DNA of 43,792 nt from the NCBI GenBank assembly GCA_030765505.1, contig JAVCCL010000035.1:1-43792 (forward strand), read 5' to 3'. The stretch is from Candidatus Kaelpia imicola. Lineage in GTDB: Bacteria > Omnitrophota > Gorgyraeia > Kaelpiales > Kaelpiaceae. Made by a program: the position numbers and the translations under genes. This document shows positions 8,579 through 43,341 of this stretch, piece by piece. The first letter of the stretch is position 1. Each line of letters begins with the position of its first letter. A model generated the notes under the pieces. That model was given only the letters and a program-made list of their open reading frames with translations, was not told the DNA's origin and made no database searches.

Positions 8579-9649
8579 ATGAACTCTATTTGTGATGTAG
8601 TAGTTCTTACCTGGAACCAGCTAGATGTAGTTAAAAAGTGCATTGAGAGTTTTTTTGAAAAAACGAATATCCCTTCCAGATTAATCATTATTGATAATAA
8701 TAGCTGTGACGGAACGAAAGAGTATATAGCTTCATTGAAAGATACAGAGAATCATCAAGTTAGTATCGTGCTGAATAGTGAAAACAGAGGTTTTGTGAGA
8801 GGGATGAACCAGGGAATAGCTCTATCAGAGGCTCCCTATGTATGCTTAGCAAATAGTGATTTGATTTTTACCAAAGACTGGCTTAAAGAGATAATTTTGG
8901 TGTTCGAAAAGTACCCGGATGTAGGGGTTTTGAATCCGGACAGCAACAATCTAGGATTAAGATTTGATAAAGGAGAGTCTTTAGATGAAGCTGCTGAGAG
9001 ATTGAAAATTAGAGAAAGTGGCGATTTTGAAGAGATGCCCTTCTGCATAGGTTTTTGCATGCTGATAAGAAGGAGTGTGATTGAAAAGGTGGGAGTATTA
9101 TCAGAAGAGTTTATACCTATGTTTTTTGAAGATACGGATTATTCGATGAAATCTAATCAGGCAGGATATAGAGTAGGAGTAGCTAAGAGATCTTATGTCT
9201 GGCACGAAGAGCATGTCTCTTTAAAGGATATAGGAGATAAGAGAAAAGAGGAAATTTTTAAAAACAGCAGAGATGTTTTCTTTAAAAAATGGGGTAAGAT
9301 TTTGCGTATCGCATGGATTGTGGAAAATTACAAAGAGTTGGTCGAGAATATTAATCGAGGTATAGAGTTAGCGCGAAATGGTAATTTTGTATGGTTTTTT
9401 GTTAAGAATTTAAAAGTAAACAAAGATAAAATCTTTAAAGAGAATGGGTTTATTAAACATTCCGGAGTCTATTTCATTAGTTACAGGAATAGAGTCGACT
9501 TAATGTGGAAAATCTTGAAAAAGAAGAAAAGATATCAGCCGATAATAGTAAAAAGTAGATTTTTGGGGTATCTCTTCGCTAACTTAGGATATGAAGTGAT
9601 AAAGAAGTTCGATAGAAGTAAAATAACAGAGATAAAAAAGATAGGTTAA
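8579..9649 (+). CDS. Glycosyltransferase family 2 (rhamnosyltransferase-like)
   Basis: The N-terminus reads 'MNSICDVVVLTWNQLDVVKKC', followed by 'LIIIDNNSCDGTKEYI' (nucleotide binding), 'NRGFVRGMNQGI', 'VCLANSDLIFTKDW' (D-x-D-like NSD) and 'FFEDTDYSMKSNQAGY' (ED catalytic region). This is the WbbL/GT2 pattern that often uses dTDP-rhamnose. ATG 8579 is chosen over an upstream in-frame TTG (8537) because the latter would extend 14 poorly matching residues into the previous gene. The protein has 356 residues, with an extra basic C-terminal region of about 100 residues. The neighbouring rml genes may supply its donor. Confidence 0.85.
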   Translation: MNSICDVVVLTWNQLDVVKKCIESFFEKTNIPSRLIIIDNNSCDGTKEYIASLKDTENHQVSIVLNSENRGFVRGMNQGIALSEAPYVCLANSDLIFTKDWLKEIILVFEKYPDVGVLNPDSNNLGLRFDKGESLDEAAERLKIRESGDFEEMPFCIGFCMLIRRSVIEKVGVLSEEFIPMFFEDTDYSMKSNQAGYRVGVAKRSYVWHEEHVSLKDIGDKRKEEIFKNSRDVFFKKWGKILRIAWIVENYKELVENINRGIELARNGNFVWFFVKNLKVNKDKIFKENGFIKHSGVYFISYRNRVDLMWKILKKKKRYQPIIVKSRFLGYLFANLGYEVIKKFDRSKITEIKKIG

Positions 9650-9811
9650 AATCAATATTCTCTCCAATATAAGCTTAAGATAAAGAATTACAAAGATTGT
9701 AATGGAGTAGATAGAGATGTCCGGATTATTTAGATTGATTAAAAAGATTCTTAGTAAATAGGGTATTTAGTTATTTTAAAAATAAAGTATATAGTGTAAA
9801 ATTTCATAACC

Positions 9812-10552
9812 ATGAAACTTAAATTTAAGATCTTAATACCTCTAGCTGTATTGGTTATAGCAGCTGTATCTTATTCAAGATTTCTATTGTTTGACAGAAA
9901 CAATTTAAATTTACCTCAAAATATTAATAATCTCCATTATCAGGCTTACTGGTGGATAATACCGGTTGGAGAAGCGGTTCTTACTGTAAGCGAGAATCAA
10001 CTTTATAACGGGGAAGATGCTGTTTTAATAGAAGCAGAAGCAGAGACGAAAGGTATATTCGAGACTATCTTTGGTATTAAAACTAAGATGAACTCCGTTG
10101 TTGATGCTGAGACTATGCTCCCTATCCTTTTCAGAGAAGTAACTTATCGTGTGGATGAGAAAAAAGAGGATAAGATTATAAATTACGATCAGGAAAACAA
10201 TAAGTTAACTACAAAAGATGCTATCTGCCGTATCTTACCCAGTACCCATGACCCTCTCTCTGCAATTATGTTTTTAAGGAATAAGGATATTAAGGAAGGA
10301 GATAATATAGAGATAAATCTAAATAGTAATCGAAGTAATTATAAAGTTGGGATTGATGTAATGAATAAAATTAAGAATAGAGAGAGAGAATTCTTCCATC
10401 TTAAAGGTCTATCTGAAAGAAGACAGGGTGAGAAAGCGCGCCACAGAGTTGAGTTCTCACTCTATATAACAGAAGGTGAGCATATTCCTGTTTTAATTAG
10501 AGCTTTTACTCCTCTTGGGCCTATTGCATTTAAACTGGTTAATCCTGATTAA
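9812..10552 (+). CDS. DUF3108 domain protein, exported or membrane-anchored
   Basis: The 246-residue protein begins with Lys residues and a hydrophobic stretch ('ILIPLAVLVIAAVSY', residues 8-22), a signal peptide or anchor. The body matches the DUF3108 pattern: 'YWWIIPVGEAVLTV', 'GIFETIFGIKTKMNSVVD', 'THDPLSAIMFLR', 'PVLIRAFTPLGPI'. The family is thought to be a beta-rich envelope domain of unknown function. A -10-like TAAAAT (9797-9802) lies 9 bp before the ATG and no Shine-Dalgarno is visible. It sits upstream of the carbamoyltransferase. The role is unknown, probably periplasmic. Confidence 0.75.
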   Translation: MKLKFKILIPLAVLVIAAVSYSRFLLFDRNNLNLPQNINNLHYQAYWWIIPVGEAVLTVSENQLYNGEDAVLIEAEAETKGIFETIFGIKTKMNSVVDAETMLPILFREVTYRVDEKKEDKIINYDQENNKLTTKDAICRILPSTHDPLSAIMFLRNKDIKEGDNIEINLNSNRSNYKVGIDVMNKIKNREREFFHLKGLSERRQGEKARHRVEFSLYITEGEHIPVLIRAFTPLGPIAFKLVNPD

Positions 10553-10569
10553 GTCTATTAAACAATATT

Positions 10570-12279
10570 GTGAAGATACTAGGGATTGCGGCGCCGTTCG
10601 GACATGACTCATCAGCAGCCCTTATTGTTGATGGTAAGATAGTTGCGGCAGTTGAAGAAGAGCGTTTTACACGTAAGAAGCATGCTGAAGGACAGCTCCC
10701 CCTAAACTCTGTTAAATACTGCCTTGAGGCCTCAGGATTAAGGCCGGAGGATATAGATATTATAGCCTATCCCTGGGCTGTCAGTGCTCTGCGCAGCAAG
10801 AGAAGAGAGTATCTCTTCAGGACTTTTAAGAGCAGGCCTTCAAGAGCATATAAGAAGTTCTTCCGTAATAGAAAGGAGTTTAATGACCAGATAAACTTTA
10901 TAAATAAAACACTCTCTCCCTGCGGTTTTGATACAGACAATATAAATATCAGGTGGGTTGAGCACCACACGGCTCATGCAGCAAGCAGTTTTTACTTATC
11001 AGGCATGAGCGAAGCAGCCTATCTCTCTATTGATGCAGGGGGTGAGATAGTATCGACTCTGATTGGGAAGGCAAAAGACAGCAGGCTGACTAAGATAAAA
11101 GAGATTATAGCACCTGATTCTCTGGGCGACTTTTATGCCACCATGACAGATTACCTGGGTTTCAGGCGCGGCAATGGCGAATATAAGGTTATGGGTATGG
11201 CGCCGTACGGCGATCCCGATAATTTTAATTTTGACCATATTATTAACTGGATAGATAGAAAGAAAAGCTATTGCTGTAATGATGACTATGTCTGGGTGCA
11301 GAGAAGCAGGAGGTTTAAAGCTGATAAGGTCTATTCCAAGAAGATGGTTGATGAGTTTGGCTTGGAGAGAGAAGGAGAGGGTCTATCAGAGCCTTATATT
11401 CATATCGCAGCAGTTACACAGAAGAAGTTGGAGGATATAACGGTTAAACTTATCGATACTTATCTTAAAGATGAATTAGAGAGGCATGGTAATCTCTGTT
11501 TTGCAGGGGGCTGTGCTTTAAATGTTGCCTTAAACAGGGTATTACTTAAGCTGCCTTATATAAAGAGACTCTTTGTTCAGCCTGCATCTCATGATTCAGG
11601 GGGTTCTCTGGGCGCTGCAGCTTTTGCAGCAGTAGAGGCAGGGGATAGAGTTGAAGTTATGAATCATGTCTATTACGGTCCGGAGTACTCTAATAGTCAG
11701 ATAGAAGGCGAGCTTAAAAGGTCAGGCCTTGCATATAAGTATGAAGATAATATAGCTGAGACTGTAGCTGATCTATTATGCCAGGATGAGATTGTCGGCT
11801 GGTTCCAGGGCAGGATGGAGTGGGGACCAAGAGCATTAGGGGCAAGGAGTATAATAGGCAATCCAACAATACCCGGAACAGCTGATAGAATAAATGCTTT
11901 AATAAAATTCAGAGAGAAGTGGCGCCCATTCTGCCCTTCTATCTTAAGAGAGTTTGCCTCTGATATCCTAAACTCAGACCACCCGGCTCCTTTTATGGCT
12001 ATAGCCTTCGATGTTAACGAAAGCTGGCGTGAGAAGATACCTGAAGTAGTCCATGTCAATGGAACCTGCAGGCCGCAGATAGTAGATGAACATACCAACC
12101 TGAAGTACTATAAGCTTATTAAGAGCTTTCAGCATAAAACCGGGGTACCTGTCGTCATAAATACATCTTTAAACAGAAAAGGTGAGCCTATAGTCTGTAC
12201 CCCTCATGATGCGGTAGAGATGTTTAAGGGGAGCGGGTTAGAATATATGGCAATAGGTGATTACTTGGTTTGGAAATAG
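10570..12279 (+). CDS. Carbamoyltransferase, NodU/TobZ family
   Basis: The 569-residue protein has the Kae1-like N-domain: 'ILGIAAPFGHDSSAALI', 'AAVEEERFTRKKH', 'WVEHHTAHAASSFY' (metal-binding His), 'AYLSIDAGGE', and 'CFAGGCALNVALN'. The C-terminal carbamoyl-transfer domain has 'GRMEWGPRALGARSIIGNP' and 'FREKWRPFCPSIL'. The family uses carbamoyl phosphate and ATP to carbamoylate hydroxyls of sugars or antibiotics. GTG start, 17 nt after the DUF3108 gene. In this locus the likely target is a surface-glycan sugar (inference). Confidence 0.9.
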   Translation: MKILGIAAPFGHDSSAALIVDGKIVAAVEEERFTRKKHAEGQLPLNSVKYCLEASGLRPEDIDIIAYPWAVSALRSKRREYLFRTFKSRPSRAYKKFFRNRKEFNDQINFINKTLSPCGFDTDNINIRWVEHHTAHAASSFYLSGMSEAAYLSIDAGGEIVSTLIGKAKDSRLTKIKEIIAPDSLGDFYATMTDYLGFRRGNGEYKVMGMAPYGDPDNFNFDHIINWIDRKKSYCCNDDYVWVQRSRRFKADKVYSKKMVDEFGLEREGEGLSEPYIHIAAVTQKKLEDITVKLIDTYLKDELERHGNLCFAGGCALNVALNRVLLKLPYIKRLFVQPASHDSGGSLGAAAFAAVEAGDRVEVMNHVYYGPEYSNSQIEGELKRSGLAYKYEDNIAETVADLLCQDEIVGWFQGRMEWGPRALGARSIIGNPTIPGTADRINALIKFREKWRPFCPSILREFASDILNSDHPAPFMAIAFDVNESWREKIPEVVHVNGTCRPQIVDEHTNLKYYKLIKSFQHKTGVPVVINTSLNRKGEPIVCTPHDAVEMFKGSGLEYMAIGDYLVWK

Positions 12280-23258: not shown

Positions 23259-23334
23259 GGTTCTAATTCCATCATTTAATTATTTTACCTTAGGTTGGCT
23301 CGTCTTATAAATGCAGATAATAGTAGTAAAATAC

Positions 23335-23363
23335 TTGATATTATTAATTTTTGTATGTATATT
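23335..23363 (+). promoter_or_regulatory. Promoter of the mntA-hepT pair
   Basis: TTGATA (23335-23340), a 17 bp spacer, and TATATT (23358-23363). The ATG of mntA begins 6 bp after the -10, so the predicted +1 is the start codon itself: a leaderless mRNA. No Shine-Dalgarno is present. Confidence 0.7.
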
Positions 23364-23369
23364 TAAGCT

Positions 23370-23657
23370 ATGAAGGAGAATATTGAAGCAATAAAACAGA
23401 AAATTGTTCCTATTTTGCAAAATTACGGAGTTAAAAAAATAGCTCTTTTTGGCTCTTCTATTCGAGATGAGATGGAAGAGAACAGTGATATTGATATTCT
23501 AATAGATATTAAGGCAGATATTAGTCTGCTTGGCTTTGTAGGGCTTAAACAAAAACTTGAAGAAGTTTTAGGGCGGAAAGTAGATTTAGTAGAATATGAT
23601 ACTCTTAAACCTATTCTTAGAGAAAGGATTTTAAAAGAACAGGTAGTGCTATTATGA
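23370..23657 (+). CDS. mntA: MntA-type nucleotidyltransferase antitoxin
   Basis: This 95-residue minimal nucleotidyltransferase has the exact GSX10DXD motif: G28-S29 in 'ALFGSSIRDE', then D40-I-D42 in 'NSDIDILID'. A third acidic position lies in the later 'VDLVEYD'. In characterised MntA/HepT systems this enzyme AMPylates the tyrosine of the HEPN toxin motif and so silences its RNase. It overlaps the toxin gene by 4 nt (ATGA). The antitoxin appears intact while its partner is broken. Confidence 0.88.
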   Translation: MKENIEAIKQKIVPILQNYGVKKIALFGSSIRDEMEENSDIDILIDIKADISLLGFVGLKQKLEEVLGRKVDLVEYDTLKPILRERILKEQVVLL

Positions 23658-23998
23658 AAAGAGATATCAGGGTATATATTGAAGATATTTTAGAGGCTAT
23701 CTCAAAGATAGAAGAGTATATAAAGGGACTTAATAGTGAGGATGACTTTTACAATAATACCCAAGTTCAGGATGCTGTTTTAAGGCGGTTAGAAATTATT
23801 AGTGAAGCTGTTAAAAGTATTCCTCAAGAATTCCGAGATCAATATCTAAATATACCGTGGAAACAAATTGCTGGCATGCGAGACATACTTATTCATGAAT
23901 AATTTGGGGTAAATCTAAAGCGAACCCTAAAGGTTGCCAAAGAAGATATAGTTGATTTAAAAGATAAGATTTTAAAGATAAAAAAAGATTTAAGCTGA
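23654..23998 (+). pseudogene. hepT: HepT-like HEPN toxin, interrupted by an in-frame stop
   Basis: Residues 1-82 follow the HepT/DUF86 pattern: 'MKRDIRVYIEDILEAISKIE', 'AVLRRLEIISEA', 'WKQIAGMRDILIHE'. The RNase motif RX4HXY is present as R76 and H81. The codon that should encode Tyr (two after the His) is TAA at 23900-23902. Beyond it the same frame stays open for 31 codons to TGA 23996-23998 and reads as the expected HepT C-terminus ('FGVNLKRTLKVAKEDIVDLK'). The full gene would be 114 residues plus one stop, a normal size. One base change from TAT or TAC explains it. The truncated product should be inactive. Confidence 0.85.
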
Positions 23999-42992: not shown

Positions 42993-43341
42993 GGGGGTGA
43001 ATGGATTCGATCCATTAAGTAGGCTTTGAAGCTGCATGCCGAGGATATCAGGCGGCCTCGCTAAAAACCTGATAACACAATTAAGTGACGCTGGTTGCGT
43101 CCCATTCTCTTTCTGTTAAAGAGAGAGGCCTCTCTTAGGGTTTACCTGTGACTCTATCTGAGGCTTGAAAAGCAGGTTGCCTCTCTTATTCTGCCTGCGG
43201 ATAAGAGGTTAAGACTTAGCAGGATAGCTTCTTTAAATCCTGCCTTTTGGAGTTAAAGAGGTGAATTTAAATAAAAGGCTAAACATGTAGAAGCTCAGAG
43301 TACACTCATTGGAGACGCGGGCTCAATTCCCGCCACCTCCA
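42993..43341 (+). ncRNA. ssrA: tmRNA (one-piece), CCA not encoded
   Basis: The tRNA-like ends pair: GGGGGTG (42993-42999) with CACCTCC (43334-43340), discriminator A43341. The 5' end continues AATGGATTCGA and the 3' end has the T arm GCGGG-CTCAATT-CCCGC. A stem ATCAGG/CCTGAT with CCTCGCTAAAAA between is like the tmRNA region before the tag. The next bases after A43341 are TCT, so CCA must be added enzymatically. The best candidate tag frame is 43087-43119 (resume codon GAC, stop TAA in a hairpin loop CTCTTT/AAAGAG), reading DAGCVPFSFC. The tag assignment is much less certain than the gene. Confidence 0.93.

What the first reader, a model, noticed from the sequence alone, without database searches (positions are those of the whole stretch)
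23894..23998. HEPN toxin knocked out by a stop codon exactly at its AMPylation/catalytic tyrosine
The HepT motif RX4HXY reads R76...H81-E82 and then TAA in place of the Tyr codon. The frame stays open and family-like for 31 more codons. In characterised MntA/HepT pairs this Tyr is the residue modified by the antitoxin, so a single base change removes both the catalytic motif and the antitoxin's target while the antitoxin gene remains intact. This suggests very recent disarming, perhaps a retained antitoxin acting against other HEPN toxins (anti-addiction).
Basis: partly seen in the sequence, partly recalled or inferred. Interest (0 to 1): 0.7.

Follow-up and report, generated by a model that had tools for sequence, protein, structure and literature searches.

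The report
Disarmed HepT toxin, antitoxin kept
In this uncultured bacterium a toxin-antitoxin pair has lost its toxin to a premature stop codon while the antitoxin gene stays whole, an ordinary way for such pairs to decay that turns up again and again in related genomes, so the stop falling on a well-known tyrosine is most likely chance.

Summary
In a MAG related to Candidatus Omnitrophota, mntA (23370-23657) is intact and the overlapping hepT frame has TAA at codon 83 (23900-23902), the Tyr of RX4HXY; 31 family-like codons follow. The two nearest relatives (same genus, 88% aa identity; another family, 83%) carry Tyr there, so the stop is specific to this genome. It is a pseudogene: TAA is an ordinary stop here, no UAA-suppressor tRNA or restart codon was found, and the last helix (88-113) is lost. 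"Catalytic tyrosine" is wrong: R76 and H81 precede the stop; in Shewanella HepT, Y104A stays toxic, while lesions at 107 and 118 (downstream) abolish toxicity. The Tyr position is compatible with chance (2 of 59 nonsense routes). Toxin loss with antitoxin kept is common: in-frame stops in 9/150 HepT, 0/150 MNT, 0/150 S8; hepT broken or absent beside mntA in 25/80 loci, against 0/43 the other way. New: the relative has an AbiEii-XRE pair between apt and mntA; in the window a ~1.36-kb deletion most likely fused the AbiEii-type promoter to the mntA ATG, removing mntA's own leader. Misexpression may have favoured hepT loss (inferred).

The parts
23335..23363 (+). Sigma-70-like promoter TTGATA-17-TATATT six bases before the mntA ATG; homologous to the promoter of an AbiEii gene in G001
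   Evidence: function not tested
23364..23372 (+). Probable deletion junction: AbiEii-type leader fused to the mntA start codon; no Shine-Dalgarno sequence
   Evidence: about 1.36 kb lies between the two start codons in G001
23370..23657 (+). mntA, MNT-domain adenylyltransferase antitoxin, 95 aa, intact, GSX10DXD present
23654..23902 (+). hepT, truncated reading frame, 82 aa, ends at the Tyr codon of RX4HXY
23900..23902 (+). Premature stop TAA, codon 83
23903..23998 (+). Untranslated remainder of hepT: 31 codons, family-like, then TGA; encodes the last helix (88-113) in intact relatives

Best explanation
This is a decayed MntA/HepT-like toxin-antitoxin pair. A nonsense change in the lineage of this genome truncates HepT after residue 82. 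The fragment keeps the codons for R and H of the RNase motif but loses the Tyr, the conserved Phe-Gly that follow, and the whole last helix, so no working HEPN RNase should form. MntA remains intact and is probably transcribed, now from a promoter that most likely belonged to a deleted neighbouring AbiEii-XRE pair. Shown by sequence: the stop, the intact relatives, the intact MntA frame, the homology of the leader to that of AbiEii. Inferred: loss of toxicity, expression of MntA, the deletion (rather than an insertion in the relative), and the selective reason, which is most simply the usual one-way order of TA decay (toxin first, because losing the antitoxin first is costly).
For: Stop and open family-like remainder. 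Tyr in both close, intact relatives. TAA ends 15 of 41 long window ORFs; no tRNA for a stop codon among those over cut-off. Last helix 88-113 lost in a confident model whose best PDB matches are S. oneidensis HepT; positions 107 and 118 of that protein, downstream of its Tyr, are needed for toxicity. The same one-sided decay is general: stops in 9/150 HepT, 0/150 MNT, 0/150 S8; hepT not intact beside mntA in 25/80 loci, reverse 0/43.
Against: No reads, no expression data and no assay. A consensus error or strain polymorphism at this one base cannot be excluded. Little further decay is seen after the stop, which fits a recent event but also an error.
Confidence: 0.88

Rival explanations
1. Anti-addiction or immunity: hepT is lost but mntA is kept by selection because MntA adenylylates incoming HepT toxins of the same subfamily.
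For: Close HepT/MntA pairs lie in other Omnitrophota families and other phyla in different neighbourhoods, so the pair appears mobile. MntA motifs are intact. MntA-only loci are common.
Against: No other PF01934 HepT in the genome. Window-specific changes in mntA (8 synonymous, 5 non-synonymous) are too few to show selection after the stop. Toxin-first decay needs no benefit of the antitoxin.
Confidence: 0.2
2. Promoter capture forced the loss: deletion of the neighbouring AbiEii-XRE pair removed mntA's own leader and placed it behind the AbiEii promoter without its XRE regulator; the changed MntA:HepT balance favoured inactivation of hepT.
For: Leader homology to AbiEii genes (score 106 against G001, shuffled maximum 34) and none to other mntA leaders; ribosome-binding site present in G001 and absent in the window.
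Against: Order of events unknown; the expression effect is inferred; other lineages lose hepT without known promoter change; an insertion of AbiEii-XRE in G001 is not fully excluded.
Confidence: 0.2
3. Assembly or consensus error, or a minor strain variant: the population mostly has a sense codon at this place.
For: MAG without reads here; one base only; remainder of the frame well kept.
Against: No internal stop in 150 S8 and 150 MNT matches of the class, so such errors are rare; neighbouring genes in the window are uninterrupted.
Confidence: 0.08
4. Programmed readthrough or recoding at the TAA gives a regulated full-length toxin.
For: The frame after the stop is still family-like, and a second HEPN gene of the genome also has an in-frame TAA.
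Against: TAA is an ordinary stop here, no UAA-reading tRNA was found, close relatives use a plain Tyr codon, and other HepT stops lie at unrelated positions.
Confidence: 0.02

Closest known systems
Type VII HepT/MntA toxin-antitoxin pairs (S. oneidensis SO_3166/SO_3165; T. cleftensis HepT/MntA)
   Same: Gene order mntA-hepT with overlap, MNT with GSX10DXD, HEPN of PF01934 with RX4HXY in the intact relatives, HepT fold in the model
   Different: In the window hepT is cut at the Tyr codon; the proteins are shorter (95 and 114 aa in relatives) and score below NCBIfam's equivalog cut-offs
Decaying chromosomal TA loci (hok-sok copies in E. coli K-12, ccdO157)
   Same: Toxin-antitoxin locus inactivated by point mutation, insertion or rearrangement (PMC2654758)
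   Different: Different TA families; here the decay is counted on both genes and is strongly one-sided
Solo antitoxins and the anti-addiction model (ccd of Erwinia chrysanthemi 3937)
   Same: An antitoxin gene kept without a working toxin; solo toxins and antitoxins are abundant (PMC2701414; PMC2654758)
   Different: No protecting function has been shown for this MntA

Membership tests
Type VII HepT/MntA TA system | HEPN toxin of PF01934 with RX4HXY | tested here: not met
   Fold family met, R and H present, Tyr codon is TAA; met in the relatives G001 and G049
Type VII HepT/MntA TA system | Adjacent MNT with GSX10DXD | tested here: met
   mntA intact; Polbeta 62.4 bits, over the cut-off
Type VII HepT/MntA TA system | NCBIfam equivalog cut-offs for HepT and MntA | tested here: not met
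   MntA 55.6 bits, HepT read through 39.3 bits, cut-off 60 for each
Type VII HepT/MntA TA system | Adenylylation of the toxin Tyr by the antitoxin, and RNase toxicity | not testable with these tools
   Needs an assay; the target Tyr is absent in the window
Decayed TA locus (toxin pseudogene) | Disabling lesion in the toxin with intact orthologues elsewhere | tested here: met
Anti-addiction module | Antitoxin neutralises a toxin encoded elsewhere | not testable with these tools
   No other PF01934 HepT in the genome; cross-neutralisation needs an assay
Anti-addiction module | Selection keeps the antitoxin after toxin loss | tested here: inconclusive
   Too few window-specific changes in mntA: 8 synonymous, 5 non-synonymous

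The most novel reading that the evidence does not exclude
Deletion of one TA pair (AbiEii-XRE) handed its promoter to the next pair (MntA-HepT), and the resulting imbalance forced the second toxin to be disarmed while its adenylyltransferase antitoxin was kept as a stand-alone immunity gene: a chain reaction of TA decay within a stacked TA island.
Probability: 0.12. Interest if true: 0.55.

Novelty: new member of a known kind. Interest (0 to 1): 0.33.

Why it matters
TA pairs are expected to decay toxin-first, and solo antitoxins are proposed to protect against incoming toxins. The MntA/HepT family gives a countable case: nonsense, frameshift, deletion and truncation mark hepT next to an intact mntA in many phyla, with no reverse case among 43 loci read here. 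Natural MntA-only loci make the idea of a retained antitoxin as immunity testable. The single stop codon in this window is by itself ordinary.

Tried and rejected
Tyr as a hot spot: among HepT frames with stops in the class and the nonsense cases of the wider survey, none but the window has a stop at the motif Tyr; the chance of at least one in 12 events is about 0.34. Code change or suppressor tRNA: not supported. Restart after the stop: no ATG, GTG or TTG in frame. Another HepT in the genome as MntA's target: none of PF01934; the other MNT- or HEPN-like loci are of other types. A first alignment used the wrong strand for two loci and was replaced. Stops reported in MNT matches looked like decay, but all 20 inspected are natural gene ends; the other five were judged from coordinates and earlier translations. 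The PDB sequence search with HepT alone was weak (E about 0.8); the fold search gave the S. oneidensis HepT structures first, with modest E-values. One protein alignment failed on wrong coordinates. Two source papers on anti-addiction and ccd decay are not held. No close orthologue was found to judge the second interrupted HEPN gene.

Full report
What was claimed.

Check of the observation. The sequence is as described. mntA runs 23370-23657; hepT starts at 23654; codon 83 at 23900-23902 is TAA; R76 and H81 precede it; 31 further codons stay open to TGA at 23996-23998. Read through, the frame matches Pfam HepT-like over its full length at 92.6 bits, against 75.1 bits for the truncated form. 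The window is a 43.8-kb contig of a 1.46-Mb MAG, 97% complete, with one PF01934 gene.

Relatives. Two close homologues are intact and carry Tyr at this codon: G001 (same genus, 88% protein identity, same place beside ribAB) and G049 (same class, other family, 83%, different neighbourhood). The stop therefore arose in the lineage of this genome. Two more relatives, G002 (same genus) and G003 (same family), have apt and ribAB nearly adjacent without the pair, an empty site. So the TA material most simply entered between apt and the ribAB promoter before the window genome and G001 parted.

What the truncation does. The predicted structure of the intact G001 protein (mean pLDDT 91.1) has its long helices at 5-24, 36-54 and 88-113, with the motif between; its best PDB matches are S. 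oneidensis HepT structures. The stop removes Tyr83, the Phe-Gly after it (invariant in 24 aligned homologues) and the last helix. In S. oneidensis HepT, R97 and H102 are essential for toxicity, Y104A is still toxic, and single changes at 107 and 118 abolish toxicity (PMC4621449). Y104 is the residue that receives AMP from MntA (PMC7641770); the two papers differ on how far MntA still neutralises the Y104 mutant. So the Tyr is the antitoxin's target, not a catalytic residue, and the disarming comes from truncation. That the fragment is inactive is inferred from fold and literature, not tested.

No way round the stop. TAA ends 15 of 41 long ORFs in the window, none of the tRNAs over the cut-off has an anticodon for a stop codon, and no start codon lies in frame after the stop.

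Is the place of the stop meaningful? With a Tyr codon in place, the gene has 59 one-base routes to a stop, two of them at this Tyr and three in the R/H/Y motif. In 384 genomes of the class, 9 of 150 listed HepT matches have in-frame stops; the others lie at unrelated places, such as a Trp, an Arg and a Gly position. With about a dozen nonsense cases in hand, at least one at the Tyr is expected with probability about 0.34. Chance is enough.

Is the pattern meaningful? Yes, but it is general. The same census gives no internal stop in 150 listed MNT matches (20 of the 25 reported stops were inspected and are gene ends; the other five were judged from coordinates and earlier translations) and none in 150 S8 matches; Fisher P is 0.003 for each comparison. 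In 80 loci anchored on MntA across bacteria and archaea, hepT is intact in 55 and not in 25: 16 keep a recognisable remnant (nonsense, frameshift, internal deletion, truncation; in two only the first codons) and 9 lack it. Two of the 25 have a shortened mntA. In 43 loci anchored on HepT that could be read, an uninterrupted MNT gene was adjacent in every one (three further loci were a fragment without MNT or another subfamily). P is 8e-6, or 1.5e-5 without the two shortened loci. Cautions: anchor selection works in both directions, loci are not fully independent (two pairs are near-identical), the classification of the 25 was by eye, and some MntA homologues may have other partners. The direction is what TA theory predicts; decay of chromosomal TA loci and abundance of solo antitoxins are known (PMC2654758; PMC2701414). 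No paper giving this count for MntA/HepT was found in the held library, which is not proof of absence.

An event nearby. In G001 an AbiEii-type nucleotidyltransferase (PF08843) and an XRE regulator lie between apt and mntA. The window spacer before mntA aligns with the G001 leader of AbiEii right up to the start codon (score 106, shuffled maximum 34), not with the leader of mntA in G001 or G049 (13 and 18, within the shuffled range). AbiEii genes of other Omnitrophota families have a similar block, TTGACA-17-TATACT, shortly before their ATG (above all 500 shuffles for L220 and L222, borderline for L221 and L225, not significant for L227). The block is therefore best read as AbiEii's own, and the window as the product of a deletion of about 1.36 kb that fused it to mntA. 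mntA has thereby lost the GAGGAG site seen in G001 and is probably read from a leaderless transcript (promoter-like site 23335-23363, ATG at 23370; such sites are also frequent by chance in this AT-rich stretch). Whether this upset the toxin:antitoxin balance and favoured hepT loss is inference, and the order of events is not known. Insertion of AbiEii-XRE at the start codon in G001 is the alternative, made less likely by the shared promoter block.

Verdict. Observation confirmed; interpretation partly supported. A pseudogenised toxin with an intact antitoxin, a new member of a known kind of decay, with an informative comparative pattern and a probable promoter-capture scar. Interest is modest for the single site and somewhat higher for the asymmetry across loci.

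Noticed in passing
window 23259-23369; L024 (G001) 9626-11101: Probable deletion scar: the leader of an AbiEii-XRE pair present in G001 is fused to the mntA start codon in the window, about 1.36 kb missing.
   Followed up: partly
G000:C20:14346-15035 (-), L230: A second HEPN gene (PF05168, read through into an MNT domain) of the same genome has an in-frame TAA at codon 37; no close orthologue was found to judge it by.
   Followed up: partly
L088 (Ca. Susulua stagnicola) downstream of 2285: Only the first codons of hepT remain after mntA, and an ORF that looks like an IS30-family transposase follows (named from memory, not scanned).
   Followed up: no
L063 (G321:C172) and L159: hepT copies with several stops (three and two), older stages of decay next to MNT genes whose motif is intact.
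   Followed up: no
window 43257-43341: Weak tRNA-like match below the Rfam cut-off (28.1 bits); ARAGORN finds no tRNA there.
   Followed up: partly
window 23370-23657: MntA matches PADLOC candidate defence family PDC-S09 (E 2.9e-28), so PADLOC would flag the locus as a candidate defence gene even though hepT is broken.
   Followed up: no
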